Shown: positions 6,421 to 18,992 of the stretch, one piece after another
Layout of the letters: each line of letters begins with the position of its first letter
Numbering within the stretch: the first letter of the stretch is position 1
Assembly (NCBI RefSeq): GCF_947301925.1
Contig: NZ_CAMYUE010000001.1
Coordinates: 186,001 to 250,000, forward strand
Length of the DNA stretch: 64,000 nt
Reading direction: 5' to 3'
Origin: an uncultured Ruminococcus sp.
GTDB lineage: Bacteria; Bacillota; Clostridia; Oscillospirales; Ruminococcaceae
Made by a program: the position numbers and the translations under genes
The notes under the pieces: generated by a model
Databases searched by the model: none
What the model was told of the DNA's origin: nothing
What the model saw: the letters and a program-made list of their open reading frames with translations, nothing else

Positions 6421-7068
6421 ATGTCAAAAAACTCAATATCAAACTCTGTCATACGAAGACTACCAAGGTATTATCGTTTTCTTGGCGAGCTTGAAAATAA
6501 TGGATATGTTCGTATATCTTCGAGAGAGCTGTCTGAGAAGATGGGGCTGACAGCTTCGCAGATCAGACAGGATTTCAACTGCTTCGGCGAATTCGGTCAG
6601 CAGGGTTACGGCTATAACGTCAGTGATCTTAGACAGGAAATAGGGAAGATACTTGGACTTGACAAGCAGACTCCCATGATACTTCTTGGTGCAGGTAATC
6701 TTGGAAAGGCTATTGCTGCTCATATTGATTTCCGCAACAAGGGCTTTGATCTTATCGGAGCTTTTGATATCAACGAAGAACTCATAGGCAAGGAAATAGG
6801 CGAGCTGAAGGTAAAGAGCGTTGATGAGCTGAGCTCGTTCTGCGCTGAAAACAAGCCTGTCGCTGCAATTCTTTGCGTTCCTATGCAGTCGGCCGAAAAG
6901 CTTGTGAACACTCTTATTGAGTGCGGCATACAGGCTTTCTGGAATTTCACTCATTATGATCTGAAGGTTGCTCATAAGGGCGTAGCGGTTGAAAACGTTC
7001 ACCTTGGCGACAGCCTTACAACTTTGTCCTATTGCTTGAATAATATGGAGGATAAGGACAAGAAATAA
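6421..7068 (+). CDS. rex: Redox-sensing transcriptional repressor Rex
   Basis: A 215-residue repressor: N-terminal winged helix (residues 1-80, with SSRELSEKMGLTASQIRQD and FGQQGYGY) and a Rossmann NAD(H)-binding domain with LLGAGNLGKAI (about residue 92). Rex dimers bind operators of the TTGTnAAnnnnTTnACAA type when NAD exceeds NADH and release them as NADH rises (family knowledge). It is the last gene of the acn-icd unit and lies directly upstream of the fumarase/Hdr/fumarate reductase unit, whose long leader has a Rex-like palindrome (7432-7449). This makes local control of NADH-consuming fumarate reduction plausible. Confidence 0.95.
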   Translation: MSKNSISNSVIRRLPRYYRFLGELENNGYVRISSRELSEKMGLTASQIRQDFNCFGEFGQQGYGYNVSDLRQEIGKILGLDKQTPMILLGAGNLGKAIAAHIDFRNKGFDLIGAFDINEELIGKEIGELKVKSVDELSSFCAENKPVAAILCVPMQSAEKLVNTLIECGIQAFWNFTHYDLKVAHKGVAVENVHLGDSLTTLSYCLNNMEDKDKK

Positions 7069-7431: not shown

Positions 7432-7449
7432 TTGTTAATTCGATATCAA
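7432..7449. promoter_or_regulatory. Candidate Rex operator upstream of fumC
   Basis: TTGTTAA (7432-7438), 4-bp spacer, ATATCAA (7443-7449). The left half matches the clostridial Rex half-site exactly; the right half matches TTAACAA at 5 of 7 positions. Flanking bases extend the symmetry (ATTG...CAAT). It lies about 30 bp before the -35 box. A separate palindrome, AGAATA (7454-7459) / TATTCT (7464-7469), lies between it and the promoter. Confidence 0.4.
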
Positions 7450-7585: not shown

Positions 7586-8962
7586 ATGGATTATCGTATC
7601 GAACACGACTCAATGGGTGAAGTAAAAGTGCCTGCTGATAAGTATTGGGCAGCTCAGACCGAAAGAAGTCATGAGAATTTTCTTATTGGCGTTGGCATAG
7701 AAACTATGCCAAGGGAGATAACTCACGCATTCGGTATACTGAAAAAAGCAGCTGCTCTTTCAAATCATCAGCTCAAACCCGAAAAAATGACCGATCGTAA
7801 GCTTGATGCTATTTCCAGAGCTTGCGACGAGGTAATAAGCGGTTCACTTAACGATCATTTTCCGCTTGTTGTATGGCAGACCGGAAGCGGTACTCAGTCG
7901 AATATGAATGCCAATGAGGTAATTGCCAACAGAGGAAACGAGATCGCCGGCGAGAAGCTCCTCCATCCCAATGATGACATAAATATGAGCCAGTCGTCAA
8001 ATGATACTTTTCCGACTGCAATGCATATTGCAGCTGTTATTGCTCTTGAAGATAAGGTGATACCTGCTGTTGATACGCTTATAGATACCTTTAAGAGACT
8101 TGAATCCGAGAATGAGGGGATAGTTAAGAGCGGAAGGACACACCTTCAGGATGCTACTCCCATAAAGTTTTCTCAGGAGATCAGCGGCTGGAGAGCTTCT
8201 CTTGAAAAGGACAGAAAGATGATCCTTTCTTCATGCGAAGAGCTCAAGGAGCTTGCGCTTGGCGGTACAGCTGTTGGAACAGGCCTTAACGCTCCCGAGG
8301 GATTTGCAGAACTGTCTGCTGAAAACATAAGTAAGCTTACAGGCAAAAACTTTATAACATCTCCCAATAAATTCCATTCTCTTACTTCAAAGGATGAGAT
8401 AGTCTTTGCACACGGCGCTCTGAAGGCTCTTGCAGCCGATATGATGAAGATAGCCAATGACGTAAGATGGCTTGCTTCAGGTCCCCGCGACGGCCTTGGA
8501 GAAATATTCATTCCCGAGAATGAACCGGGTTCTTCAATAATGCCGGGTAAGGTAAATCCCACGCAGTGCGAACAGGTGACAATGGTTGCTGTTCAGGTAA
8601 TGGGCAACGATGTTGCTGTGGGTATGGCAGCTTCACAGGGTAATTTTGAACTTAATGTGTTCATGCCCGTATGTGCGTATAATTTCCTTCAGTCTGCAAG
8701 ACTTCTTGCGGAGTCGATCATTTCATTCAATAAGAACTGTGCAGTTGGAATAAAAGCCAACAAGGAAAAGATGCACCATAATCTTCATAATTCTCTTATG
8801 CTTGTAACAGCTCTCAATCCGTACATCGGATACGAGAATGCTGCGAAGACCGCTAAAAAAGCTTTCAAGGACAATATCTCCCTGAAGGAAGCCTGTGTTG
8901 AACTTGGTTTCCTTACAGCTGAAAGATTTGACGAGGTATTCCACCCCGAGCAGATGGTTTGA
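7586..8962 (+). CDS. fumC: Class II fumarate hydratase
   Basis: A 458-residue fumarase interconverting malate and fumarate. It has the superfamily signature GSSIMPGKVNPTQCEQ (about residue 316), the active-site region SGRTHLQDATPI and the substrate-binding TGSGTQSNMNANEVI. ATG 7586 is chosen because GGGAGAGG (7573-7580) lies just upstream; a TTG at 7556 lacks a ribosome site. It is the first gene of the long unit and hdrB follows after 22 nt. In this context the enzyme probably runs from malate to fumarate to feed the fumarate reductase. Aspartase is a paralogous possibility but the motifs favour FumC. Confidence 0.95.
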   Translation: MDYRIEHDSMGEVKVPADKYWAAQTERSHENFLIGVGIETMPREITHAFGILKKAAALSNHQLKPEKMTDRKLDAISRACDEVISGSLNDHFPLVVWQTGSGTQSNMNANEVIANRGNEIAGEKLLHPNDDINMSQSSNDTFPTAMHIAAVIALEDKVIPAVDTLIDTFKRLESENEGIVKSGRTHLQDATPIKFSQEISGWRASLEKDRKMILSSCEELKELALGGTAVGTGLNAPEGFAELSAENISKLTGKNFITSPNKFHSLTSKDEIVFAHGALKALAADMMKIANDVRWLASGPRDGLGEIFIPENEPGSSIMPGKVNPTQCEQVTMVAVQVMGNDVAVGMAASQGNFELNVFMPVCAYNFLQSARLLAESIISFNKNCAVGIKANKEKMHHNLHNSLMLVTALNPYIGYENAAKTAKKAFKDNISLKEACVELGFLTAERFDEVFHPEQMV

Positions 8963-8984
8963 TCTATACGAAAGGAAGCGTAAT

Positions 8985-9782
8985 ATGGAAACTTTTACAT
9001 ATTATCCGGGCTGTACTCTGAGGACAAAGGCAAGAGATCTTGATAGATATGCAAGGTCATCAGCTATGGCTCTCGGTATCTCCCTTGAAGAGCCCGATGA
9101 CTGGCAGTGCTGTGGCGGTGCGTATACTACCGCCAAAGACGAGATAGCTACAAAGCTCTCGGCAGTCAGGACGCTCAATGCAGCTAAATCAGTCAACAGG
9201 CCTCTTGTGACTGTATGTTCTGCCTGCCATAATGTTATAAAGCAGACTAATTATGACATTATCCACGATGACGAAATGGCTTCAAAGGTAAATAATTATC
9301 TGAAGCTCGACGAGCCTTACTGCGGAGAGACAACAGTTTATCACTATCTCGAGCTGCTTCGTGATGTTATCGGATTTGACGAACTTGCAAAGAGAGTTGT
9401 CTGTCCGTTCAAGGGAAAGAAGATCGCCGCATATTATGGTTGCCTGCTTCTTCGTCCGTCAAAGGCTCTTGCAATGGATGATCCGGAGAATCCTTCGATC
9501 ATGGAAGATTTCATTAAAGCCATCGGAGGTACTCCTGTGATATATGCACAGAGAAATGAGTGCTGCGGAGGCTATATCACTCTTGAGGACAAGGATCAGG
9601 CCGCAAAGAGAAGCGGAGTTGTTATGCGTTCTGCTGCGGATCAGGGAGCCGATATGATCATCACAGCCTGTCCGCTCTGTCTGTATAACCTGAAAAAGAA
9701 CTCCGGCTCCGAGCTTCCTGTTTACTACTTTACCGAGCTTCTTGCGGAAGCTCTTGGCGTGAAGGAGGAAAACGATGAATAA
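8985..9782 (+). CDS. hdrB: HdrB-like subunit with two CCG domains
   Basis: A 265-residue protein with two complete cysteine-rich CCG domains. The first has YPGC, QCCGGAYTT and CSACH; the second has YYGC, ECCGGYITLED and CPLC. In HdrB of methanogens such domains bind the non-cubane [4Fe-4S] clusters that reduce heterodisulfide (family knowledge). ATG 8985 has AAAGGAAG upstream; the longer frame starting at 8895 runs back into fumC and is rejected. Its stop overlaps hdrC by 8 nt, implying coupled translation. A methanogen CoM/CoB disulfide is not expected here, so it may serve another disulfide or act purely as electron relay to the fumarate reductase subunit. Confidence 0.9.
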   Translation: METFTYYPGCTLRTKARDLDRYARSSAMALGISLEEPDDWQCCGGAYTTAKDEIATKLSAVRTLNAAKSVNRPLVTVCSACHNVIKQTNYDIIHDDEMASKVNNYLKLDEPYCGETTVYHYLELLRDVIGFDELAKRVVCPFKGKKIAAYYGCLLLRPSKALAMDDPENPSIMEDFIKAIGGTPVIYAQRNECCGGYITLEDKDQAAKRSGVVMRSAADQGADMIITACPLCLYNLKKNSGSELPVYYFTELLAEALGVKEENDE

Positions 9783-10158
9783 GAATTTAAAGGAACAGGT
9801 TCTTCGTTCCAGCGGAGTCAATGTGCTTAAATGTATGCGCTGCGGAAAGTGCTCGGGCACCTGTCCGTCGTATGACGAGATGGAATATCATCCGCATCAG
9901 TTCGTGTATATGGTTGAACGCGGAGATATAGAGACTCTGATGAACTCTAAGTCGATATACAAGTGTCTGACCTGCTTTGCCTGCGTCGACAGATGTCCGC
10001 GTAATGTTGAGCCCGCTAAGGTAGTTGAGGCTGTACGTCTTGCCGCTGTCAGACAGCAGGGCAACAATCACATGACACCGGCTCAGATACCTGAAATGCT
10101 CGATGATGATCTGCCGCAGCAGGCTGTCGTTACAGCTTTCAGAAAATACATAAAATAA
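9775..10158 (+). CDS. hdrC: HdrC-like 4Fe-4S subunit
   Basis: A 127-residue protein with two [4Fe-4S] motifs, CMRCGKCSGTCP and CLTCFACVDRCP, the usual HdrC layout in which helical segments flank the clusters. It connects HdrA to HdrB electrically in Hdr complexes (family knowledge). The start overlaps the hdrB stop and hdrA begins 15 nt downstream. HdrB and HdrC are separate genes here, in the order B-C-A. Confidence 0.92.
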   Translation: MNKNLKEQVLRSSGVNVLKCMRCGKCSGTCPSYDEMEYHPHQFVYMVERGDIETLMNSKSIYKCLTCFACVDRCPRNVEPAKVVEAVRLAAVRQQGNNHMTPAQIPEMLDDDLPQQAVVTAFRKYIK

Positions 10159-10173
10159 GGAGGAGATGGCTAA

Positions 10174-12165
10174 ATGCAGAAAATAGGCGTTTTTGTCTGT
10201 CATTGCGGAACCAATATCGCTGCAACGGTAGACGTTAAGGCTGTTGCTGAAGCACTGGGGCATGAACCAGGTGTTGTTATCTCCCGGGATTATCAGTATA
10301 TGTGTTCCGAGTCGGGACAGAATCTTGTGAAAAATGCAATTAAGGAACATAAGCTCACAGGTATTGTAGTATGTTCCTGCTCACCGAGAATGCATGAGAA
10401 TACGTTCAGAAAAGCTGCTGCTTCCGTAGGTCTCAATCCGTATCTTGTAGAGATCGCAAATATTCGCGAGCAGTGTTCCTGGATACACAAGGATATAGCG
10501 ACTGCTACCGAGAAGGCTATAATACTCGGTAAAGCTGCTGTTGCCAAGGTGCATCTCAACGCCCCGCTCACAGCAGGAGAGAGCCCTGTAGCCAAGAGAG
10601 CTCTTGTTATCGGCGGAGGAATTGCCGGTATACAGACCGCTCTTGATATTGCAGAGGCGGGCTTTGATGTAGATATAGTGGAGAAGAACCCCACGATCGG
10701 CGGTAAAATGGCTCAGATTGACAAGACCTTCCCCACACTTGACTGCGCCGCTTGTATCCTTACTCCTAAAATGGTAGAGGCTTCGCAGAATGAGCATATC
10801 ACTATCCATTCATTCAGCGAGGTAACAGATGTAAAAGGCTTTGTAGGTAACTTTACAGTTACCATAAAGAAAAAGGCGCGTTATGTTGACGAGACAAAAT
10901 GTACAGGCTGCGGTCTTTGTACTGAAAAATGTCCCATGAAAAAAGTGCCCAATGAGTTCAACATGGGACTTGATAACCGTACAGCGATCTATATCCCGTT
11001 TGCTCAGGCAGTTCCCAAGGTGGCTACTATTGATCCGAATTACTGCATGATGCTGAAGAACGGAAAGTGCGGAGTCTGCTCAAAGGTATGCTCTGTGGGA
11101 GCTATCGATTACAAGCAGGAGGATAGGTTTATTGAGCAGAAGTACGGCGCTATAGTTGTAGCCACAGGCTTCAATCCTATTAATCTCGATAAGTACGATG
11201 AGTTTGCATACAATCAGTGTCCCGATGTAGTTACATCACTTGAGCTGGAGCGACTTATGAACGCCGCAGGACCCAATGGCGGTACGCTTCTTCGTCCTTC
11301 CGATAAGACACATCCTCACAAGATCGTTTTTGTTCAGTGTGTTGGTTCAAGATGTGACGACAGCAAGGGCAAGCCTTATTGTTCAAAGATATGCTGTATG
11401 TATACAGCTAAGCACGCTATGCTCATCCGTGAGAAATATCCTGATACAGAGGTATATGTATTCTACATAGATGTCCGTACACCCGGCAAGAACTTTGATG
11501 AGTTCTACCGCCGTGCAGTTGAGCAGTACAATGTTCATTACATAAAGGGTATGGTAGGCAAGGTAACACCTCGCTCCGACGGAAAGATTGAGGTACAGGC
11601 TTCAGATCTTCTTGCAGATGAACAGCTCCATATCGATGCTGATTTGGTGGTTCTTGCTGCGGCTATAGAGCCTGACAAGACGGCACGGCCTCTGGCTACT
11701 ATGCTTACGACTCAGATGGACACTAACGACTTCTTCACAGAGGCTCACCCGAAGCTTCGTCCTGTTGAGAGTGCTACGGCTGGTATATTCCTTTCAGGCG
11801 CTTGTCAGGGACCTAAGGATATACCTGAAACAGTTGCGCAGGCAAGTGCGGCTGCGGCGAAGGCTATCGGTCTTCTCGTAAAGAACAGTATTACCTGTAA
11901 CCCCTGTGTTGCACATTCGGACGAGCTCATGTGCAACGGCTGCTCCTCCTGTGAAAAGGTTTGTCCTTACGGAGCTATCACATATATTGACAAGGAGTTC
12001 AGAATGCCTGACCGAACAACCGCTGTACGCCGCGTAGCAAGTGTTAATCCTGCGGTATGTCAGGGCTGCGGTGCTTGTACAGTCGCTTGTCCTTCGGGAG
12101 CTATGGACCTTAACGGCTTCTCTAACAGTCAGATCATGGCGGAGGTAGACGCAATATGCAAGTAA
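10174..12165 (+). CDS. hdrA: HdrA-like bifurcating flavoprotein
   Basis: A 663-residue flavoprotein. An N-terminal HdrA domain has CHCG and CSCSPRMHENTF; an FAD domain starts with VIGGGIAGIQTALDIAEAG (about residue 145) followed by GGKMAQ and the CAAC pair. Iron-sulfur motifs are CTGCGLCTEKCP, CGVCSKVC and two C-terminal ferredoxin sets, CNGCSSCEKVCP and CQGCGACTVACP. HdrA is the site of flavin-based electron bifurcation in Hdr-Mvh and Hdr-Flx complexes, splitting hydride pairs between ferredoxin and a higher-potential acceptor (family knowledge). RBS AAGGAGGAG. The stop overlaps flxD by 10 nt. No cysteine is replaced by a stop codon, so there is no sign of selenocysteine. Confidence 0.95.
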   Translation: MQKIGVFVCHCGTNIAATVDVKAVAEALGHEPGVVISRDYQYMCSESGQNLVKNAIKEHKLTGIVVCSCSPRMHENTFRKAAASVGLNPYLVEIANIREQCSWIHKDIATATEKAIILGKAAVAKVHLNAPLTAGESPVAKRALVIGGGIAGIQTALDIAEAGFDVDIVEKNPTIGGKMAQIDKTFPTLDCAACILTPKMVEASQNEHITIHSFSEVTDVKGFVGNFTVTIKKKARYVDETKCTGCGLCTEKCPMKKVPNEFNMGLDNRTAIYIPFAQAVPKVATIDPNYCMMLKNGKCGVCSKVCSVGAIDYKQEDRFIEQKYGAIVVATGFNPINLDKYDEFAYNQCPDVVTSLELERLMNAAGPNGGTLLRPSDKTHPHKIVFVQCVGSRCDDSKGKPYCSKICCMYTAKHAMLIREKYPDTEVYVFYIDVRTPGKNFDEFYRRAVEQYNVHYIKGMVGKVTPRSDGKIEVQASDLLADEQLHIDADLVVLAAAIEPDKTARPLATMLTTQMDTNDFFTEAHPKLRPVESATAGIFLSGACQGPKDIPETVAQASAAAAKAIGLLVKNSITCNPCVAHSDELMCNGCSSCEKVCPYGAITYIDKEFRMPDRTTAVRRVASVNPAVCQGCGACTVACPSGAMDLNGFSNSQIMAEVDAICK

Positions 12166-12602
12166 ATGAAAACAAAGAGTTTGAACCGCTGATAGTTGCC
12201 TTCTGCTGTAACTGGTGTTCTTATGCAGGAGCTGATCTTTCGGGAACAAACAGACTTAACTATCCTACAAATGTAAAGATAATCAGAGTGCCCTGTTCAT
12301 GCAGAGTAAACCCTATGTTTATTCTGAGAGCCTTTCAGCGAGGCGCTGACGGAGTGATACTCTGCGGCTGTCATCCCGGTGACTGCCACTATACATCAGG
12401 AAATTACTTCACAAGAAGAAGAATGACACTTCTTTTCAGTATGCTTGATTTCCTTGGCATCGAACGCGACAGAACGAGAGTTGAGTGGGTCTCGGCAGCT
12501 GAGGGCGCTAAATTCGCAGCTACCATGAATGAATTTACCGAAGCGGTAAAGAAACTCGGACCTAACCGCAGATTGGAGGATTTACGATGCAGGAAGCAAT
12601 GA
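12156..12602 (+). CDS. flxD: MvhD/FlxD-type 2Fe-2S subunit
   Basis: A 148-residue MvhD-family protein with conserved cysteines in FCCNWCSY, PCSCR and CGCHPGDCHY, which bind one [2Fe-2S] cluster and hand electrons to HdrA (family knowledge). No MvhA/MvhG hydrogenase genes are adjacent. Instead flxC, flxB and flxA follow, so the donor is predicted to be NAD(P)H through FlxA rather than H2. The start lies inside the hdrA end and its stop overlaps the next start, so translation is tightly coupled. Confidence 0.9.
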   Translation: MQVNENKEFEPLIVAFCCNWCSYAGADLSGTNRLNYPTNVKIIRVPCSCRVNPMFILRAFQRGADGVILCGCHPGDCHYTSGNYFTRRRMTLLFSMLDFLGIERDRTRVEWVSAAEGAKFAATMNEFTEAVKKLGPNRRLEDLRCRKQ

Positions 12603-13558
12603 TAAACAGAGCAAAGCAGCTTCTGGCTGACGGCACCGTAAACCGTGTCATCGGCTGGAAGAGGGGAGAGTTCGCTTATGATATTACTCCTGCTGTTTTT
12701 GATTCTGCTGATGAACTTGACAGCGACTTTGTCTTTGATGATTTTACAGCCGCAAATGTGTCAAAGTATCTTGTTAAAGAGAGTAAAAAGGAAGGAAAAG
12801 TGCTTGCCTTCCTGAAGCCCTGTGATACATACAGCTTCAATCAGCTCGTCAAGGAACACAGGGTGGTTCGCGAAAATGTATATATCATAGGTATCCCCGG
12901 CGGACCTAAGCTTGATGCCGAAAAAATCAAGGCAAAGGGTATTACAGGCATTCTGGGCGTTAAGAATGAGAACTATACACTGAAAATAGATACCGTATAC
13001 GGCGAGGAGACCATGCCTTTCTATGAGGCTGTGCTTGATAAATGCGCTTCGTGCAAGAGCAAGAAACACGTTGTATATGACGAGCTTATGGGCGATGAGG
13101 GCGATGTACTTGACTCAGATCGCTTTGATATGGTAGAAAAGCTTGAAAACATGACAGCTCAGGAGCGTTATGATTTCTGGCGTGAGCAGCTTTCAAAGTG
13201 TATACGCTGTAATGCGTGCAGAAATGTCTGTCCTGCCTGCACTTGTGAGAAGTGCGTGTTTGACAATCCCGCTTCGGGCGTAGAGAATAAAGCTCCGGCT
13301 GACAGCTTCGAGGAGAATATGTTCCATATTATCCGTGCATTCCATGTGGCAGGAAGATGCACTGACTGCGGAGAGTGTTCGAGGGTGTGTCCTCAGAATA
13401 TACCGCTGCACCTGCTCAACAGAAAGTTCATAAAGGATATCAACGAGCTGTACGGAAACTATCAGGCCGGTGAGGATACCACCTCAAGAGCTCCTCTCAA
13501 TGACTACCGACAGGATGACTGCGAGGCCGGAATTGTACATGAAAGGGGAGTTGAATAA
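12587..13558 (+). CDS. flxC: FlxC-like iron-sulfur subunit
   Basis: A 323-residue protein. The N-terminal ~150 residues resemble the FrhB-like or sulfhydrogenase-beta electron-transfer fold; then come CASCKS and two 4Fe-4S sets, CIRCNACRNVCP (followed by CTCEKC) and CTDCGECSRVCP. The name follows gene order in the Desulfovibrio Flx-Hdr locus (FlxD, FlxC, FlxB, FlxA) and I am unsure of the exact letter. It probably passes electrons between FlxA/FlxB and FlxD/HdrA. TTGGAGGA precedes the ATG. The last base of its stop is the first base of the next start codon. Confidence 0.8.
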   Translation: MQEAMINRAKQLLADGTVNRVIGWKRGEFAYDITPAVFDSADELDSDFVFDDFTAANVSKYLVKESKKEGKVLAFLKPCDTYSFNQLVKEHRVVRENVYIIGIPGGPKLDAEKIKAKGITGILGVKNENYTLKIDTVYGEETMPFYEAVLDKCASCKSKKHVVYDELMGDEGDVLDSDRFDMVEKLENMTAQERYDFWREQLSKCIRCNACRNVCPACTCEKCVFDNPASGVENKAPADSFEENMFHIIRAFHVAGRCTDCGECSRVCPQNIPLHLLNRKFIKDINELYGNYQAGEDTTSRAPLNDYRQDDCEAGIVHERGVE

Positions 13559-14577
13559 TGCTGAAGATATCACTTGATAAGCTGGATAAGCTTTTTGAAG
13601 CGGTCTCAGCTTCGCAGACTCTCTATATTCCCGTTGACCGTGAGGACGGTGCAGCAGAGTATAAGAAGTACGAAAGCGGTATGAAGCTCAGCAGTGCTCT
13701 GAATACAGTAAGGAGCGCAAAGGACTTCTTTTTCCCTCAGACAGAAAATCTCGTTGATTTCAAAATGGAGGGCAAGAATATCGAGGTCATCGATGTCCGC
13801 GAGGAATCTGAGGATTTTGTAATATTCGGAGTTCGTGCCTGTGATGCAAGAAGCTTCACTATTCTTGACAAGGTATTCCTTTGCGAGCCTGTTGACAGCT
13901 ATTACAAGAATCGCCGTGATCACGGAACTGTAGTCACAATGGCCTGCACACGTCCTGCCGAGACTTGTTTCTGCGGAACTTTCGGTATCGACGCAGCGGC
14001 TCCGGAGGGAGATGCTGCCTGCTACAGCGACGGCGAGAGCCTGTTTATCGAGGCTCATAACGAAAAGGGACAGAAGTTCATCGACTCCGTTGCTTCGCTT
14101 TTTGAAGATGGCGATACAGCAAAGCTTGAAGCTGTTCGTGAAAAGACAAGGGAAGTGCTCAAAAAGCTCCCTCTTGCAAATCTTACTACTGATAATTTCG
14201 GCGGCGACAAGCTCAACGAGTACTTTAACTCCGACAAGTGGGGAGAGCTTTCCGAGAGCTGTCTCGGCTGCGGTACCTGTACATTTGTATGTCCCACCTG
14301 CCAGTGCTATGATATTAAGGATTTCAACACAGGTCATGGTATAAAGCGATTCCGCTGCTGGGATTCCTGTATGTATTCCGATTTCACGAAAATGGCGCAT
14401 GGCAATCCGAGACTTACCCAGCTTGAGCGTTTCCGCCAGAGATTTATGCATAAGCTTGTGTATTTTCCGGCAAATAATAACGGCGAATTCGGATGTGTGG
14501 GCTGCGGAAGATGCCTTTCAAAGTGTCCCATATCTATGAACATAGTCAAGGTAATGAAAGCATTGGAGGTAAAGTGA
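13558..14577 (+). CDS. flxB: FlxB-like (AsrA-related) iron-sulfur subunit
   Basis: A 339-residue protein related to anaerobic sulfite reductase subunit A and hydrogenase beta-type subunits. It has a central cysteine cluster ACTRPAETCFCGTFG and two C-terminal 4Fe-4S sets, CLGCGTCTFVCPTCQC and CVGCGRCLSKCP. Such subunits sit next to an FAD/NAD-binding subunit in Asr, Hyd and Flx complexes (family knowledge). Start and stop both overlap neighbours by one base (TAATG, TGATG), so it is part of a stoichiometric set. No siroheme reductase subunit follows, which argues against sulfite reduction. Confidence 0.82.
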   Translation: MLKISLDKLDKLFEAVSASQTLYIPVDREDGAAEYKKYESGMKLSSALNTVRSAKDFFFPQTENLVDFKMEGKNIEVIDVREESEDFVIFGVRACDARSFTILDKVFLCEPVDSYYKNRRDHGTVVTMACTRPAETCFCGTFGIDAAAPEGDAACYSDGESLFIEAHNEKGQKFIDSVASLFEDGDTAKLEAVREKTREVLKKLPLANLTTDNFGGDKLNEYFNSDKWGELSESCLGCGTCTFVCPTCQCYDIKDFNTGHGIKRFRCWDSCMYSDFTKMAHGNPRLTQLERFRQRFMHKLVYFPANNNGEFGCVGCGRCLSKCPISMNIVKVMKALEVK

Positions 14578-15404
14578 TGAATAATGATACATTGATACCT
14601 TACATAGGAGTAGTTACCGATATAAGACAGGATACCCCTGACGTAAAGACCTTCAGAGTCGTTTCTCCCGAGGGCGGCAAGGTTTTCGAGCATATGCCCG
14701 GACAGTGTGCTATGCTTTCGATCCCCGGAGTAGGTGAGGCGATGTTCTCCATAACGTCTTCTCCCACTAACAAGGAGTATATGGAGTTCAGCATCAAGAA
14801 ATGCGGATGTCTTACATCATGGCTCCATGCAATGGACGTAGGTCAGCAGATAACGATACGCGGACCTTATGGCAATCATTTCCCTGTTGAGAGCGAACTC
14901 AAGGGAAAGGATCTCCTGTTTATCGCAGGCGGTATCGGTCTTGCACCGCTTCGTTCGGTTATCAACTATGTCCGTGACAACCGTTCCGATTACGGCGAAG
15001 TACAGATAGTATACGGTTCACGTTCAAAGGATGATCTTGTTGACTACAAGGAGATCATTGACGAGTGGATGGCCGATGACGGCATTGAAGTTGATCTGAC
15101 CATTGATAATCCTCAGGAGGGATGGGACGGTCATGTAGGTTTTGTTCCGAATTACGTCAAGGAGCTCAACCCTTCCATAAACAAGACGGTCCTTATATGC
15201 GGACCTCCCATAATGATTAAGTTTACACTTTCAGGACTCAAGGAGCTTGGATTTACAGAAACTCAGGTCTACACAACTATGGAGCTGAAGATGAAGTGCG
15301 CCGTTGGCAAATGCGGACGCTGCAATATCGGAAACAAGTATGTGTGCAAGGACGGACCTGTATTCCGCTTCGATCAGCTCGATGAGCTGCCTGATGAATA
15401 TTAA
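14577..15404 (+). CDS. flxA: FlxA-like NAD(P)H-oxidising FAD/2Fe-2S subunit
   Basis: A 275-residue ferredoxin-NADP reductase-type protein. It has a flavin barrel, an NAD domain with FIAGGIGLAPLRS (about residue 118) and CGPPIM, then a C-terminal [2Fe-2S] motif of the form CAVGKCGRCNIG...YVCKDGPVF, as in AsrB/PyrK/HydG-like subunits. It is the predicted NADH entry point of the complex. ATG 14577 overlaps the preceding stop (TGATG); the longer open frame from 14493 lies inside flxB and is rejected. NADH over NADPH is inference from the Flx family, not from a diagnostic residue. Confidence 0.9.
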   Translation: MNNDTLIPYIGVVTDIRQDTPDVKTFRVVSPEGGKVFEHMPGQCAMLSIPGVGEAMFSITSSPTNKEYMEFSIKKCGCLTSWLHAMDVGQQITIRGPYGNHFPVESELKGKDLLFIAGGIGLAPLRSVINYVRDNRSDYGEVQIVYGSRSKDDLVDYKEIIDEWMADDGIEVDLTIDNPQEGWDGHVGFVPNYVKELNPSINKTVLICGPPIMIKFTLSGLKELGFTETQVYTTMELKMKCAVGKCGRCNIGNKYVCKDGPVFRFDQLDELPDEY

Positions 15405-15419
15405 GGAGGAGAATTTCGC

Positions 15420-16103
15420 ATGGATAATATGTTGAATGTTTACCTGTTCGGCAAGAGATACCAGGTACCTGCAGGTCTTACAATAATGACAGCTATGGAA
15501 TATGCAGGTTATGAACTTGTCAGAGGCTGCGGCTGCCGCAACGGTTTCTGCGGTGCCTGTGCAACTATATACAGAATAAAGGGAGAAACCGAGCTTCACG
15601 GATGTCTTGCCTGTCAGACGGAGATCCAGGAGGGAATGTATGTTGCTACACTTCCGTTCTTCCCGCTTGAAAAGAGAGTATACAATATCGAGGAGATAAA
15701 GCCCGATCAGCAGATCATGATGCAGCTTTATCCCGAGATATACAGCTGTATCGGCTGTAATGCCTGTACAAAGGCCTGTACTCAGGAACTCAATGTTATG
15801 CAGTATATCGCATACGCTCAGAGAGGCGAGTACGATAAATGCGCAGAGGAGAGCTTTGACTGCGTAATGTGCGGAGTATGTTCATCACGCTGTCCCGCAG
15901 GTATCTCACATCCTCAGGTCGCAATGCTTGCAAGACGACTCAACGGTAAGTATATTGCCCCCGAATGCGGTCATCTTGCTGACAGGGTCAATGAGATCAA
16001 CGAAGGTATATACGATGAAAAGATAGCAGAGCTTATGATCAAGGCTGTAGATGATCTTGACGAGATCAAGGATATGTACAATCATCGTGAGATCGAAAAG
16101 TAA
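15420..16103 (+). CDS. tfrB: Fumarate reductase iron-sulfur subunit (short TfrB-like)
   Basis: A 227-residue SdhB/FrdB-like protein. The N-terminal plant-type [2Fe-2S] domain uses C39, C44, C47 and probably C62. The C-terminal dicluster domain has C110-C113-C116-C120 and C148-C151-C154-C158. Canonical FrdB has a non-cysteine where this protein has C151 (Val207 of E. coli FrdB), so the cluster normally [3Fe-4S] is predicted to be [4Fe-4S]. It lacks the HdrB-like CCG extension of methanogen TfrB; that domain is supplied here by the separate hdrB gene. No membrane anchor gene is present. RBS AAGGAGGAG. Confidence 0.9.
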   Translation: MDNMLNVYLFGKRYQVPAGLTIMTAMEYAGYELVRGCGCRNGFCGACATIYRIKGETELHGCLACQTEIQEGMYVATLPFFPLEKRVYNIEEIKPDQQIMMQLYPEIYSCIGCNACTKACTQELNVMQYIAYAQRGEYDKCAEESFDCVMCGVCSSRCPAGISHPQVAMLARRLNGKYIAPECGHLADRVNEINEGIYDEKIAELMIKAVDDLDEIKDMYNHREIEK

Positions 16104-16115
16104 GGGGGAGAGAAG

Positions 16116-17717
16116 ATGTACAAGATTGAAAAGCTTAATGAACTTGCAAAGGTAGTTGCAGCCAAAAGAGCTGAAAATGCAGCCCTCGAACCCAGACGTA
16201 TGACTGCTGAAGAAAAGGACGAGCTTCTGGCTAATTTCCATCCTGATTACAAGCAGGACGAATTTACCGTACTTTCCGCAGGCGTTAACAAGGGAGATAA
16301 GGTCCCCACACAGCTTGCAGCACTTCTTCAGGGCAAGAGCCGTATCAGTTCGGATGACGTGGATCTGTCATCTCCTGATTATGATACAGATGTGCTTATA
16401 ATCGGCGGCGGCGGCGCGGGAGCTTCAGCAGCTATCGAAGCAGATGAAGCAGGCGTAAAGGCAATGATCGTCACAAAGCTTCGTATCGGTGATGCCAATA
16501 CTATGATGGCTGAGGGCGGCATTCAGGCTGCCGATAAGCCTAATGATTCTCCTGCCATACACTTCCTCGACGCATTCGGCGGTGGTCATTTTGCTGCTAA
16601 GCCTGAGTTGGTAAAGAAGCTTGTAACAAAGGCGCCCGAGGCAATACAGTGGCTCAACAAGCTCGGCGTGGAGTTCGATAAAGAGCCTGACGGTACAATG
16701 GTCACGACTCACGGCGGCGGTACTTCCCGCAAGAGAATGCACGCTGCAAAGGATTACTCCGGTGCTGAGATAATGAGAACTCTCCGCGACGAGGTCATCA
16801 ACAGAGGTATCCCCGTTGTTGATTTCACAGCTGCTGTGGAGATAATCCTTGATGAAAACGGCAGAGCCGCAGGCGCTGTTCTCATGAATATGGAGACAAA
16901 GGAACTTCTCGTTGCAAGAGCAAAGACCGTTATAATCGCTACAGGCGGCGCAGGAAGGCTCCATTATCAGGGATTCCCAACATCAAATCATTACGGAGCT
17001 ACCGCTGACGGACTTATCCTCGGCTACCGAGTAGGAGCAAAGCTGCTTTATGCTGATACGCTCCAGTATCATCCGACGGGTACAGGCTATCCCGAGCAGA
17101 TATTCGGAGCACTTGTAACCGAAAAGGTACGTTCTCTGGGTGCCAAGCTCGTAAATATAGACGGTGATGTATTCATGCATCCTCTCGAGACCCGTGACGT
17201 AACAGCAGCTTCCATCATTCGTGAATGTACAGCCCGCAATAAGGGAATAGACACAAGTCTTGGCAAGTCTATATGGCTTGATACTCCAATGATAGAGCTT
17301 ATCCACGGCGAGGGAACTATAGAGAAGCGTATCCCAGCAATGATGAGAATGTTCGGCAAGTACGGAATAGATATAAGAAAGGAACCCATACTTGTTTATC
17401 CTACACTTCACTATCAGAACGGCGGCCTCGATATCGCCGATGACTGTGCAACAGGTGTCGAGAATCTTTATGCCGCAGGCGAAGTAGCAGGCGGTATCCA
17501 CGGCAGAAACCGACTCATGGGCAATTCACTGCTTGATGTTATCGTATTCGGCAGAAATGCTGGTATCAATGCAGCAGCAAAGGCCAGGGAGACGGATTCA
17601 TCAGTTAAACTTACACTTGCTCATATTGATAAGTTCAATAAGGAGCTTGAAGCAGTCGGAGCTGCAAGTGATGTTCCTTCACCTATGCTGCTTCCTCATT
17701 ACGCAAGAAAAAAATAA
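16116..17717 (+). CDS. tfrA: Soluble fumarate reductase flavoprotein
   Basis: A 533-residue FrdA/TfrA-family flavoprotein with an ~85-residue N-terminal extension before the FAD motif IIGGGGAGASAAIEA. Active-site blocks are present: QYHPTG, TEKVRS, PTLHYQNGGL and HGRNRLMGNSLLD. At the covalent flavin position, where FrdA/SdhA have His (SHT), this protein has Asn128 (ANT), so FAD should be bound non-covalently, as in soluble fumarate reductases and L-aspartate oxidase. Aspartate oxidase is unlikely because the gene is paired with an SdhB-like subunit and follows fumarase and Hdr genes. Predicted cytoplasmic role: reduction of fumarate to succinate as terminal electron sink. Confidence 0.9.
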   Translation: MYKIEKLNELAKVVAAKRAENAALEPRRMTAEEKDELLANFHPDYKQDEFTVLSAGVNKGDKVPTQLAALLQGKSRISSDDVDLSSPDYDTDVLIIGGGGAGASAAIEADEAGVKAMIVTKLRIGDANTMMAEGGIQAADKPNDSPAIHFLDAFGGGHFAAKPELVKKLVTKAPEAIQWLNKLGVEFDKEPDGTMVTTHGGGTSRKRMHAAKDYSGAEIMRTLRDEVINRGIPVVDFTAAVEIILDENGRAAGAVLMNMETKELLVARAKTVIIATGGAGRLHYQGFPTSNHYGATADGLILGYRVGAKLLYADTLQYHPTGTGYPEQIFGALVTEKVRSLGAKLVNIDGDVFMHPLETRDVTAASIIRECTARNKGIDTSLGKSIWLDTPMIELIHGEGTIEKRIPAMMRMFGKYGIDIRKEPILVYPTLHYQNGGLDIADDCATGVENLYAAGEVAGGIHGRNRLMGNSLLDVIVFGRNAGINAAAKARETDSSVKLTLAHIDKFNKELEAVGAASDVPSPMLLPHYARKK

Positions 17718-17723
17718 AAAACA

Positions 17724-17747
17724 GGGACGCTTTTCATGAAGCGTCCC
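17724..17747. repeat. Stable hairpin between tfrA and the carrier gene
   Basis: Perfect 9-bp stem GGGACGCTT / AAGCGTCCC with a 6-nt loop. On the + strand no T run follows, so it may only attenuate transcription or protect mRNA ends; on the minus strand it is followed by a long T run although no minus gene reads into it. Confidence 0.6.
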
Positions 17748-17780
17748 GAAATATGATATAAGAAAGATAAGTGATAAATA

Positions 17781-18992
17781 ATGGATCTGTTTAATGGAAT
17801 TCTCTCTATTCACGGCGTTTCATTCCTTATGATATCGGTGATCGCTATTTCGGCTATCGGATATGTTCTTGGAAGAATAACCATAAAAGGCGTTTCACTT
17901 GGTACGGCAGGCGTTTTTATAGTCGCACTGCTGTACGGCTGCATTTTCTATAAGCAGCTATCGGATGAGATAAATACCGATTTCGTTGGAAATGCTCTGA
18001 AGATCGTCGATAATCTGGGACTGATACTCTTTGTTACGGCTGTGGGCTTTATTGCCGGCCCGAATTTCTTCGGAAACTTCAAGAAAAACTTCAAGTCATA
18101 TGTTCTTCTGGCAATTATTATCATACTGAGCGGCGGACTTGCCTGCGCAGGCTGTATAATGGTAGGCAGAAACTTTACCGACCTGAGCACAGAAGAGTTT
18201 ACAGCTATGCTTACGGGAATACTCTCGGGGGCTCTTACAAGTACTCCCGGTTTTTCTGCCGCAAAGGACGCAGTGGGAAATGACCATCTTCAGAGTATCG
18301 TATCGGTTGGCTATGCAATAGCATATATTTTCGGTGTAATAGGTGTGGTTCTGTTTGTTCAGATAATTCCTAAGCTTACGAAGGCTGATATGGCAAAGGA
18401 GAGAGAGCTTCTTGCACCTTCTTCTGCTAAAAAGACTAAGGAAAAGAAAATGTATAAGCTTATTGAGATGGACAGCTTCGGTATCATGCCCTTTGCTTTT
18501 GCAGCTGCAATAGGAATAATCATCGGTTCCTTTAAATTTGGAAACTTTTCTCTTTCAACCACAGGCGGCTGTCTGCTTGTATCGCTGATATTCGGCCATT
18601 TCGGACATTTCGGAAAGCTGTCTGTAACACCGAAGGATTCTACGCTGAAGGTGTTCAGAGAGCTTGGCCTCATGTTCTTCCTTATCGGTGCGGGAGTTTC
18701 GGGCGGAGCAAAGTTCGTGCAGTATTTTGATGCTGTATACTTTGTATACGGAATGATAATGACTGTTATTCCTATGATAATCGGTTATCTTTTCGCCAAG
18801 TATGTGCTCAAGCTCAGTCTGCTAAACAATCTCGGCTCAATAACAGGCGGAATGACTTCCACACCTGCTCTCGGTACACTTATCAGTACTGCAGGAACAG
18901 AGAATGTTGCGTCTGCTTATGCGGCAACATATCCTGTAGCACTGATATCCGTAGTTCTTGTTTCACAGTTCCTCATAATACTTTTCAAATAA
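17781..18992 (+). CDS. AspT/YidE-family carrier, predicted dicarboxylate (succinate) exporter
   Basis: A 403-residue membrane protein with two AspT/YidE half-domains, recognisable by the paired motifs GALTSTPGFSAA (about residue 155) and GGMTSTPALGTL (about residue 358), with roughly ten membrane segments. The central part is only a ~40-residue basic linker, whereas typical ~540-residue AspT and SucE proteins carry two regulatory TrkA_C (RCK_C) domains there. SucE of Corynebacterium, in this family, exports succinate (family knowledge). Its place 63 bp after the fumarate reductase, with no promoter seen between, makes succinate export the best inference. Aspartate:alanine exchange is an alternative. 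Confidence 0.75.
   Translation: MDLFNGILSIHGVSFLMISVIAISAIGYVLGRITIKGVSLGTAGVFIVALLYGCIFYKQLSDEINTDFVGNALKIVDNLGLILFVTAVGFIAGPNFFGNFKKNFKSYVLLAIIIILSGGLACAGCIMVGRNFTDLSTEEFTAMLTGILSGALTSTPGFSAAKDAVGNDHLQSIVSVGYAIAYIFGVIGVVLFVQIIPKLTKADMAKERELLAPSSAKKTKEKKMYKLIEMDSFGIMPFAFAAAIGIIIGSFKFGNFSLSTTGGCLLVSLIFGHFGHFGKLSVTPKDSTLKVFRELGLMFFLIGAGVSGGAKFVQYFDAVYFVYGMIMTVIPMIIGYLFAKYVLKLSLLNNLGSITGGMTSTPALGTLISTAGTENVASAYAATYPVALISVVLVSQFLIILFK

What the first reader, a model, noticed from the sequence alone, without database searches (positions are those of the whole stretch)
7586..18992. A probable electron-bifurcating fumarate reductase: fumarase, HdrBCA, FlxDCBA, soluble fumarate reductase and carrier in one unit
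Eleven consecutive same-strand genes, most overlapping or within 25 nt, join Hdr-Flx modules (NADH to ferredoxin plus a higher-potential acceptor) with a soluble fumarate reductase pair and fumarase, and no membrane anchor subunit. Known Hdr-Flx systems are linked to heterodisulfide or DsrC-type acceptors. Here the natural acceptor appears to be fumarate. NADH lies near -320 mV and fumarate/succinate near +30 mV, leaving enough drop to push part of the electrons to ferredoxin. This would explain succinate formation with energy conservation in a Ruminococcus. The complex and its stoichiometry are inference.
Basis: partly seen in the sequence, partly recalled or inferred. Interest (0 to 1): 0.92.

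Follow-up and report, generated by a model that had tools for sequence, protein, structure and literature searches.

The report
Electron-splitting fumarate reductase operon in Ruminococcus
A bacterium close to Ruminococcus flavefaciens carries, in one operon, the parts for a soluble enzyme that would use NADH both to make succinate and to charge ferredoxin; the gene set is real and keeps its order in the relatives that carry it, but the idea was already published for another bacterium and the reaction itself remains to be shown.

Summary
Confirmed. Eleven same-strand genes at 7586-18992 encode class II fumarase, HdrBCA, FlxDCBA, a soluble TfrBA-like fumarate reductase and an AspT-family carrier. 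The nine-gene core is intact in order in 42 of 53 TfrA-bearing loci of 396 family genomes and in 64 of 80 named loci, R. flavefaciens FD-1 included; the other 11 and 16 are cut by contig ends. Catalytic residues are invariant and cluster ligands nearly so. The genome has one HdrA, an Rnf cluster, and no hit for DsrC, the PF01127 anchor or MqnA/D. Most likely: NADH-dependent fumarate reduction coupled by HdrA to ferredoxin reduction; the coupling is inferred. Outside the family TfrAB is modular: 20 of 39 loci lie beside hdr genes, 19 (in 18 genomes) do not, and 4 of those 18 genomes lack an HdrA hit. The hypothesis is in print: PMC7282089 (2020) describes the same gene set as the 'succinate operon' of Pseudoclostridium thermosuccinogenes; PMC6315080 (2019) proposed a TfrAB-Flx-Hdr complex. 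New member of a known, unproven kind.

The parts
7586..8962 (+). fumC, class II fumarate hydratase (458 aa); makes fumarate from malate
   Evidence: TIGR00979 fumC_II 706.6 bits, over cut-off 664.75; Lyase_1 + FumaraseC_C
8985..9782 (+). hdrB-like (265 aa), two CCG domains, ligands for two non-cubane [4Fe-4S] clusters
   Evidence: CCG two stretches; PDB HdrB 8rvv_B E 7e-34; ten Cys invariant in 101 of 101 family and 18 of 18 other rows
9775..10158 (+). hdrC-like (127 aa), 2x[4Fe-4S]
   Evidence: TIGR03290 70.9 bits, below cut-off 160; eight Cys invariant 101 of 101 and 17 of 17
10174..12165 (+). hdrA (663 aa), presumed bifurcating FAD and [4Fe-4S] clusters including a C-terminal ferredoxin domain
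   Evidence: PDB HdrA 5odc_A E 1e-209 over residues 3-660; NF040770 HdrA2 804.2 bits, below cut-off 1100
12156..12602 (+). flxD (148 aa), MvhD/FlpD-type Fe-S link between Flx and HdrA
   Evidence: PF02662 FlpD 186.6 bits; matches the tail of the HdrA2 model NF040770, 640-774
12587..13558 (+). flxC (323 aa), 4Fe-4S dicluster protein
   Evidence: Fer4_8 and related; position and conservation
13558..14577 (+). flxB (339 aa), HydB/AsrA-like Fe-S protein
   Evidence: NF040829 180.8 bits (below cut-off 690), Fer4_22 106.8 bits
14574..15404 (+). flxA (276 aa), FAD/NAD(P)H-binding electron input
   Evidence: NAD_binding_1, FAD_binding_6, DHODB_Fe-S_bind; PDB 9nez_C E 1e-56
15420..16103 (+). tfrB-like Fe-S subunit (227 aa): [2Fe-2S] domain then 2x[4Fe-4S] HdrC-like domain; no fused CCG domain
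16116..17717 (+). tfrA-like flavoprotein subunit (533 aa), presumed fumarate reduction site; about 85 aa before the FAD domain
   Evidence: FAD_binding_2 239.6 bits over residues 92-472; H319, E336, R339, R360, D361, H432, R466 invariant 124 of 124 and 39 of 39, aligned to FrdA 1kf6
17781..18992 (+). AspT/YidE-family carrier (403 aa), presumed succinate exporter or C4-dicarboxylate exchanger
   Evidence: PF06826 208.8 bits; TIGR01625 150.4 bits over cut-off
7432..7449 (+). candidate Rex operator TTGTTAATTCGATATCAA, 154 nt before the fumC ATG
   Evidence: 2 mismatches to the Rex consensus (recalled); 13 of 91 family upstream regions have a site this good against 0.3% of Markov controls
6421..7068 (+). 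rex, redox-sensing repressor, upstream neighbour (likely regulator, not part of the enzyme)
   Evidence: NF003990 293.6 bits over cut-off 233

Best explanation
The operon makes the terminal steps of succinate fermentation. Fumarase supplies fumarate. FlxABCD takes electron pairs from NADH and passes them through FlxD to the FAD of HdrA, which splits them: one electron goes over HdrA's iron-sulphur clusters to ferredoxin, the other over HdrC and HdrB to TfrB and the TfrA flavin, where fumarate becomes succinate. Net: 2 NADH + oxidised ferredoxin + fumarate gives 2 NAD+ + reduced ferredoxin + succinate. Ferredoxin is re-oxidised by Rnf with ion pumping (or by hydrogenase), and the AspT-type carrier exports succinate. 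Shown by sequence: the parts, their ligands, the active site, the conserved unit, Rnf, one HdrA only, and no hit for DsrC or for the PF01127 anchor. Inferred: physical complex, NADH as donor, HdrB-to-TfrB transfer, bifurcation, direction, stoichiometry and the transported substrate.
For: Synteny: nine-gene core unbroken in 42 of 53 and 64 of 80 loci, the rest cut by contig ends; 47 of 53 TfrA-bearing family genomes also give an HdrA hit, and the loci of the 6 without one and of the 2 HdrA-only genomes end at contig edges. fumC precedes it in 40 of 42 and 61 of 64 full units. TfrA keeps the fumarate-reductase catalytic set and lacks the Glu121 of L-aspartate oxidase, the aligned residue being His199. 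The own genome has one HdrA (all 20 candidates scored), no DsrC hit, no Sdh_cyt hit, no MqnA/D hit, and an Rnf cluster. HdrA is full length against bifurcating methanogen HdrA, with its shared cluster cysteines kept in at least 100 of 101 family rows. The methanogen TfrB model NF004898 is matched by window TfrB at 19-92 and by window HdrB at 415-487, all far below cut-off, as if it held both parts in one chain. Minimal hdrC-hdrB-tfrB-tfrA units occur in 4 loci. The full Hdr+Flx+Tfr arrangement falls in two separate places of the TfrA tree. Phylum-wide TfrA and HdrA co-occur: 34 of 39 against 93 of 359. Energetics (arithmetic from -320 mV and +33 mV; ferredoxin -420 to -500 mV recalled): about -33 to -49 kJ/mol net.
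Against: No biochemical proof in any paper passage seen. TfrAB orthologues occur without hdr beside them in 19 of 39 phylum loci, and 4 of the 18 genomes concerned have no HdrA hit, so TfrAB can take electrons from elsewhere. HdrB keeps both non-cubane cluster sites, so disulphide chemistry is not excluded. PMC8092306 says that high fumarate-reductase transcription was not observed in the two ruminococci in gnotobiotic sheep (data not shown there) and lists acetate, formate and hydrogen as their products. In PMC7282089 the rise of the operon's transcripts is not significant for all subunits, and of two older experiments that it discusses, H2 addition fits the model while Na2S had the opposite effect.
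Confidence: 0.68

Rival explanations
1. Uncoupled fumarate reductase beside a separate Hdr-Flx. TfrAB reduces fumarate with electrons from reduced ferredoxin, a flavodoxin or another carrier, while Hdr-Flx reduces an unknown disulphide; the genes share an operon because both dispose of NADH.
For: TfrAB orthologues exist without adjacent hdr (19 of 39 loci) and in 4 of those 18 genomes without an HdrA hit. HdrB keeps ten cluster cysteines. hdr-flx operons without tfr beside them occur in many of the other genomes.
Against: In the window's family the nine genes were not seen apart except at contig ends; no DsrC hit and no second HdrA in the genome.
Confidence: 0.15
2. The same complex runs mainly in reverse or for biosynthesis: succinate oxidation driven by reduced ferredoxin (confurcation), or a short reductive TCA branch feeding 2-oxoglutarate, not a fermentation end-step.
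For: Distant relatives sit with genes that look like 2-oxoacid:ferredoxin oxidoreductase and sucCD (L156, L158 and similar, read by eye); isocitrate dehydrogenase lies upstream in the window; PMC6315080 places tfrAB and flx-hdr in rTCA clusters.
Against: fumC and a carrier of the family that includes succinate exporters lie in the unit; PMC7282089 links the homologous operon to succinate production.
Confidence: 0.08
3. TfrA reduces another unsaturated acid (for example aconitate) or is an aspartate-oxidising NadB relative.
For: Three divergent relatives (about 50% identity; L188-L190) lie among genes that look like MmgE/PrpD, PrpF and organic-acid transport genes (read by eye); NadB is among the nearest solved structures.
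Against: fumC precedes the core in 61 of 64 named full units; the NadB Glu121 is not conserved, and a separate NadB-like gene lies elsewhere in the genome (36% identity to TfrA).
Confidence: 0.05
4. A thiol:fumarate reductase as in methanogens: HdrBC-TfrAB oxidises two thiols (or a DsrC-like protein) to reduce fumarate.
For: The parts resemble methanogen TfrA plus a split TfrB; minimal hdrCB-tfrBA units exist.
Against: Below the curated cut-offs for methanogen TfrA (343.8 of 718 bits) and TfrB (37.6 of 385); no DsrC hit; HdrA and Flx provide electrons without thiols.
Confidence: 0.04

Closest known systems
'Succinate operon' of Pseudoclostridium thermosuccinogenes (PMC7282089, 2020, passages read; preprint Koendjbiharie and van Kranenburg 2019, title seen only in its reference list)
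   Same: Same set as described in the passages: fumarate hydratase, seven Flx-Hdr genes, two fumarate reductase genes, a possible succinate transporter; ferredoxin-linked fumarate reduction proposed there
   Different: Different organism; its sequence was not compared here. This report adds rex and idh upstream, a candidate Rex site, and a survey of relatives
tfrAB with flxABCD-hdrABC in rTCA clusters of tubeworm symbionts and Thioflavicoccus mobilis (PMC6315080, 2019, passages read)
   Same: TfrAB interspersed with Flx-Hdr, joint complex proposed
   Different: Carbon-fixation setting with korABCD and aclAB; no succinate-export unit mentioned in the passages
FlxABCD-HdrABC of Desulfovibrio (Ramos et al. 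2015, seen only as cited; Hdr/flox-1 of D. alaskensis, PMC4215793, passages read)
   Same: Same seven kinds of subunit
   Different: There the acceptor is thought to be a DsrC-type disulphide; here no DsrC hit, and TfrAB is attached
Thiol:fumarate reductase TfrAB of methanogens (Heim et al. 1998, recalled and seen as cited in PMC6315080)
   Same: TfrA-like flavoprotein; TfrB N-terminal part
   Different: No CCG domain fused to TfrB; HdrB is separate; HdrA and Flx added
HdrABC-MvhAGD of methanogens (PDB 5odc)
   Same: HdrABC core and MvhD-like link
   Different: NAD(P)H module instead of hydrogenase; fumarate instead of CoM-S-S-CoB as inferred acceptor

Membership tests
FlxABCD-HdrABC complex | All seven subunits together in one operon | tested here: met
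FlxABCD-HdrABC complex | HdrA full length with conserved cluster cysteines | tested here: met
   5odc_A E 1e-209 over 3-660; shared cluster cysteines in at least 100 of 101 family rows
FlxABCD-HdrABC complex | NADH oxidation with ferredoxin reduction (bifurcation) | not testable with these tools
   needs purified complex
P. thermosuccinogenes-type succinate operon | Fumarase + Flx-Hdr + fumarate reductase + putative carrier in one unit | tested here: met
   window gene list against the description in PMC7282089; sequences not compared
P. thermosuccinogenes-type succinate operon | Fumarate reduction coupled to ferredoxin reduction | not testable with these tools
   assumed, not shown, in the passages of PMC7282089
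Fumarate reductase/succinate dehydrogenase flavoprotein | Catalytic residues equivalent to FrdA His232, Glu245, Arg248, Arg287, His355, Arg390 (numbering recalled) | tested here: met
   H319, E336, R339, R360, H432, R466 invariant 124/124 and 39/39; alignment
Quinol:fumarate reductase (FrdABCD/SdhABCD) | Membrane anchor with haem/quinone site | tested here: not met
   no anchor gene in the unit; no PF01127 hit in the genome; the FrdC/FrdD Pfam families of the E. coli type were not searched
Methanogen thiol:fumarate reductase TfrAB | TfrB with fused C-terminal CCG (HdrB-like) domain; scores over NCBIfam cut-offs | tested here: not met
   TfrB 227 aa without CCG; 37.6 of 385 and 343.8 of 718 bits
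L-aspartate oxidase (NadB) | Glu121 (E. coli numbering, recalled) at the substrate site | tested here: not met
   aligned residue is His199; His in 124/124 family and 35/39 other rows
AspT/AAEx exchanger family (includes a succinate exporter, abstract of PMC9527358) | Asp-Al_Ex domains over cut-off | tested here: met
   PF06826 208.8 bits, cut-off 27
AspT/AAEx exchanger family (includes a succinate exporter, abstract of PMC9527358) | Transports succinate | not testable with these tools
   needs transport assay

The most novel reading that the evidence does not exclude
A dedicated nine-subunit cytosolic complex in which HdrB, normally a disulphide reductase, has become an electron adaptor that docks onto a fumarate reductase, so that fumarate is the high-potential acceptor of flavin-based bifurcation. 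In this reading it is the main succinate-forming and ferredoxin-charging enzyme of R. flavefaciens and of most of its genus (TfrA in 65 of 68 good genomes), is switched by Rex, and belongs to a wider modular family in which TfrAB is plugged onto different Hdr assemblies (full Hdr-Flx, Hdr with a doubled HdrA, or HdrBC alone).
Probability: 0.5. Interest if true: 0.75.

Novelty: new member of a known kind. Interest (0 to 1): 0.5.

Why it matters
If the coupling is real, succinate formation in these rumen and gut bacteria yields ferredoxin-borne energy without quinones or cytochromes, much as crotonyl-CoA reduction does in butyrate formers. That would alter ATP and hydrogen budgets for cellulolytic gut bacteria and bears on succinate/propionate against H2/methane partition in the rumen. 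A named strain with the whole unit (R. flavefaciens FD-1; that it is cultured and makes succinate is recalled) makes the published but untested proposal open to direct assay.

Tried and rejected
HdrB residue after Cys153: I noted Leu/Met instead of the His of methanogen HdrB and first took it as a mark of loss of disulphide chemistry. The control on 18 hdr loci not linked to tfr showed the same YYGCLL motif in 13 (L274-L286), His in L290, Gln in L291, no motif found in L287 and L288, and no hdrB hit in L289; so it is a general trait of this HdrB type and was dropped as evidence.

The Rex-like site is not found in every genus member: the best site upstream of fumC has 4 mismatches in L066 and 5 in L068.

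Papers not held: the 2019 preprint and Latham and Wolin 1977. A search for 'bifurcating fumarate reductase' found no paper; searches for FlxABCD with fumarate and Ruminococc- (four papers, of which I looked at passages in three) and for 'succinate operon' with heterodisulfide reductase and fumarate reductase (one paper) showed no report of this unit in Ruminococcus; the library is open-licence PMC only.


Full report
Observation. The ORF list gives eleven consecutive + strand genes at 7586-18992, with overlaps of 1 to 16 nt or gaps of at most 22 nt at nine of ten junctions and 63 nt at the last. Pfam and NCBIfam place them as class II fumarase (over the curated cut-off), HdrB (two CCG domains), HdrC, HdrA, FlxD (FlpD/MvhD), FlxC, FlxB, FlxA, a [2Fe-2S]/2x[4Fe-4S] subunit, an FAD_binding_2 flavoprotein and an AspT-type carrier. 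The Hdr, Flx and Tfr proteins lie below the NCBIfam cut-offs of the models they match best; names are by homology. Upstream lie NADP-isocitrate dehydrogenase and rex, both over their cut-offs.

Conservation in the family. Of 396 same-family genomes, 53 (own included) hold a TfrA orthologue (68% identity or more, or a clear fragment of one); the next matches are at 37% or less and look like NadB. HdrA is found in 49, and 47 hold both (these large searches score only three candidates per genome). In 42 of the 53 the nine-gene core hdrB-hdrC-hdrA-flxD-flxC-flxB-flxA-tfrB-tfrA is complete in order; in the other 11 the contig ends inside it. fumC precedes it in 40 of 42 (absent in L110 and L112), and the carrier follows within the stretch fetched in 20 of 42. 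The two sets may share species. R. flavefaciens FD-1 (L198) has part of idh at the edge of the locus, rex, fumC, the core and the carrier. In the genus, TfrA is in 108 of 125 genomes and in 65 of the 68 of good quality.

Outside the family. In 398 genomes spread over the phylum, 39 (own included) have TfrA at about 50% identity or more; three more have matches at 40 to 42%, which I did not count. I fetched 39 loci from the 38 others. One has the whole Hdr-Flx-Tfr set (L186); 11 have tfrBA with hdr genes including a doubled HdrA of about 1070 aa and flxD (two of them, L162 and L164, cut at the contig edge), mostly followed by genes that look like 2-oxoacid:ferredoxin oxidoreductase or sucCD; 4 have hdrC-hdrB-tfrB-tfrA; 4 have tfrBA-hdrBCA, three of these with the start of flxD in the stretch; 19 have no clear hdr in the stretch fetched, one of these (L181) cut just upstream of tfrA and one (L176) with a weak partial hdrC match (neighbours named by eye from their sequences). 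I searched 25 of these 38 genomes for HdrA: all 18 without adjacent hdr, of which 14 have HdrA elsewhere and 4 (G774, G691, G466, G462) do not, and 7 others, which all have it. Of 18 further hdr loci fetched from such genomes, most carry flx genes with hdr and none a tfr hit. Phylum-wide TfrA and HdrA co-occur in 34 of 39 TfrA genomes against 93 of 359 others (Fisher p 6e-14; shared ancestry is not corrected for; of the five misses, G649 shows HdrA-like pieces beside its tfr genes). In the TfrA tree of 60 rows the full arrangement falls in two separate places, with L186 on a long branch. So in this family the link is strict, while TfrAB as such is modular.

How electrons may reach fumarate. 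The NCBIfam model of methanogen TfrB (488 positions) is hit by window TfrB at 19-92, by HdrC at 132-221 and by HdrB at 415-487, at 31 to 39 bits, far below its cut-off of 385. The methanogen protein thus seems to carry in one chain what is separate here, which supports contact between HdrB and TfrB. The minimal hdrC-hdrB-tfrB-tfrA units point the same way. With HdrA and Flx added, the natural reading is NADH to HdrA FAD, then one branch to ferredoxin and one through HdrC, HdrB, TfrB and TfrA to fumarate. At -320 mV for NADH and +33 mV for fumarate/succinate (PMC5861303 passages) and -420 to -500 mV for ferredoxin (recalled), the sum 2 NADH + Fd + fumarate is downhill by about 33 to 49 kJ/mol, near the known crotonyl-CoA case (-10 mV in the same passages).

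Genome setting. One HdrA with all 20 candidates scored, no DsrC hit although the control rings in E. coli, no Sdh cytochrome hit, no MqnA/D hit (the classical men pathway and the E. coli-type FrdC/FrdD were not searched), and an Rnf operon with C, D, G, E, A and B read by eye from L120, two of them Pfam-confirmed. A Rex-like site lies 154 nt before fumC. Sites with 2 mismatches are found in 13 of 91 unique family upstream regions against 0.3% of Markov controls; nine of the 13 share the arms TTGTTAA and ATATCAA with a changing spacer. The rows are related and some genus members lack it (L066, L068), so this is suggestive only.

Prior work. PMC7282089 (passages read) describes the 'succinate operon' of P. 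thermosuccinogenes with the same blocks, a roughly 4-fold rise of its transcripts under CO2 limitation (not significant for all subunits), and the assumption that fumarate reductase is linked to ferredoxin reduction 'as proposed previously', citing a 2019 preprint whose title I saw only in the reference list. PMC6315080 (passages) proposes that TfrAB, KorABCD and Flx-Hdr form a complex in rTCA bacteria. PMC4215793 (passages) states in 2014 that Hdr/flox had never been studied biochemically. I found no paper on the unit in Ruminococcus in the searches named under Tried and rejected, within an open-licence library. The finding is therefore a new member of a known, unproven kind.

Results against. 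PMC8092306 (passage) did not see highly transcribed fumarate-reductase genes in two ruminococci in gnotobiotic sheep, data not shown, and lists acetate, formate and hydrogen as their products; that R. flavefaciens makes succinate is my recollection. TfrAB without Hdr exists. Nothing here demonstrates bifurcation.

Verdict. Gene content and conservation: near certain. Fumarate as substrate: about 0.9. Coupled bifurcation with TfrAB attached to Hdr-Flx: 0.68.

Noticed in passing
window 7432-7449: Candidate Rex operator between rex and fumC, with recurring arms and varying spacer in several genus members; would tie the operon to the NADH/NAD+ ratio.
   Followed up: partly
phylum loci L156, L158, L159, L161-L164, L166, L171, L172, L184: tfrBA joined to hdr genes with a fused double HdrA of about 1070 aa (1489 aa open frame in L184) and flxD, mostly followed by what look like 2-oxoacid:ferredoxin oxidoreductase or sucCD genes, without an flxA hit in the stretch: a different Hdr-Tfr assembly.
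   Followed up: partly
L173, L179, L182, L185: Minimal hdrC-hdrB-tfrB-tfrA units without HdrA or Flx hits in the stretch fetched; one clade in the TfrA tree.
   Followed up: partly
L188, L189, L190: Divergent TfrBA (about 50% identity for TfrA) beside genes that look like MmgE/PrpD, PrpF or organic-acid transport genes; may reduce aconitate or a similar acid.
   Followed up: no
HdrA hits (many phylum genomes): Many hdrA genes read through one in-frame TGA, which suggests selenocysteine; the window HdrA has none.
   Followed up: no
G774, G691, G466 (loci L152, L153, L155): TfrBA directly downstream of a pyruvate-carboxylase-like gene in genomes with no HdrA hit; the electron donor there is unknown.
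   Followed up: partly
G000:C1:378026-379205: A second, more divergent pair of Rnf-Nqr family genes in the own genome, apart from the Rnf operon at about C1:132.8-137.6 kb; one match reads through a stop.
   Followed up: no
L175, L187: TfrBA next to small multihaem-cytochrome-like proteins (read by eye), hinting at yet another electron partner.
   Followed up: no
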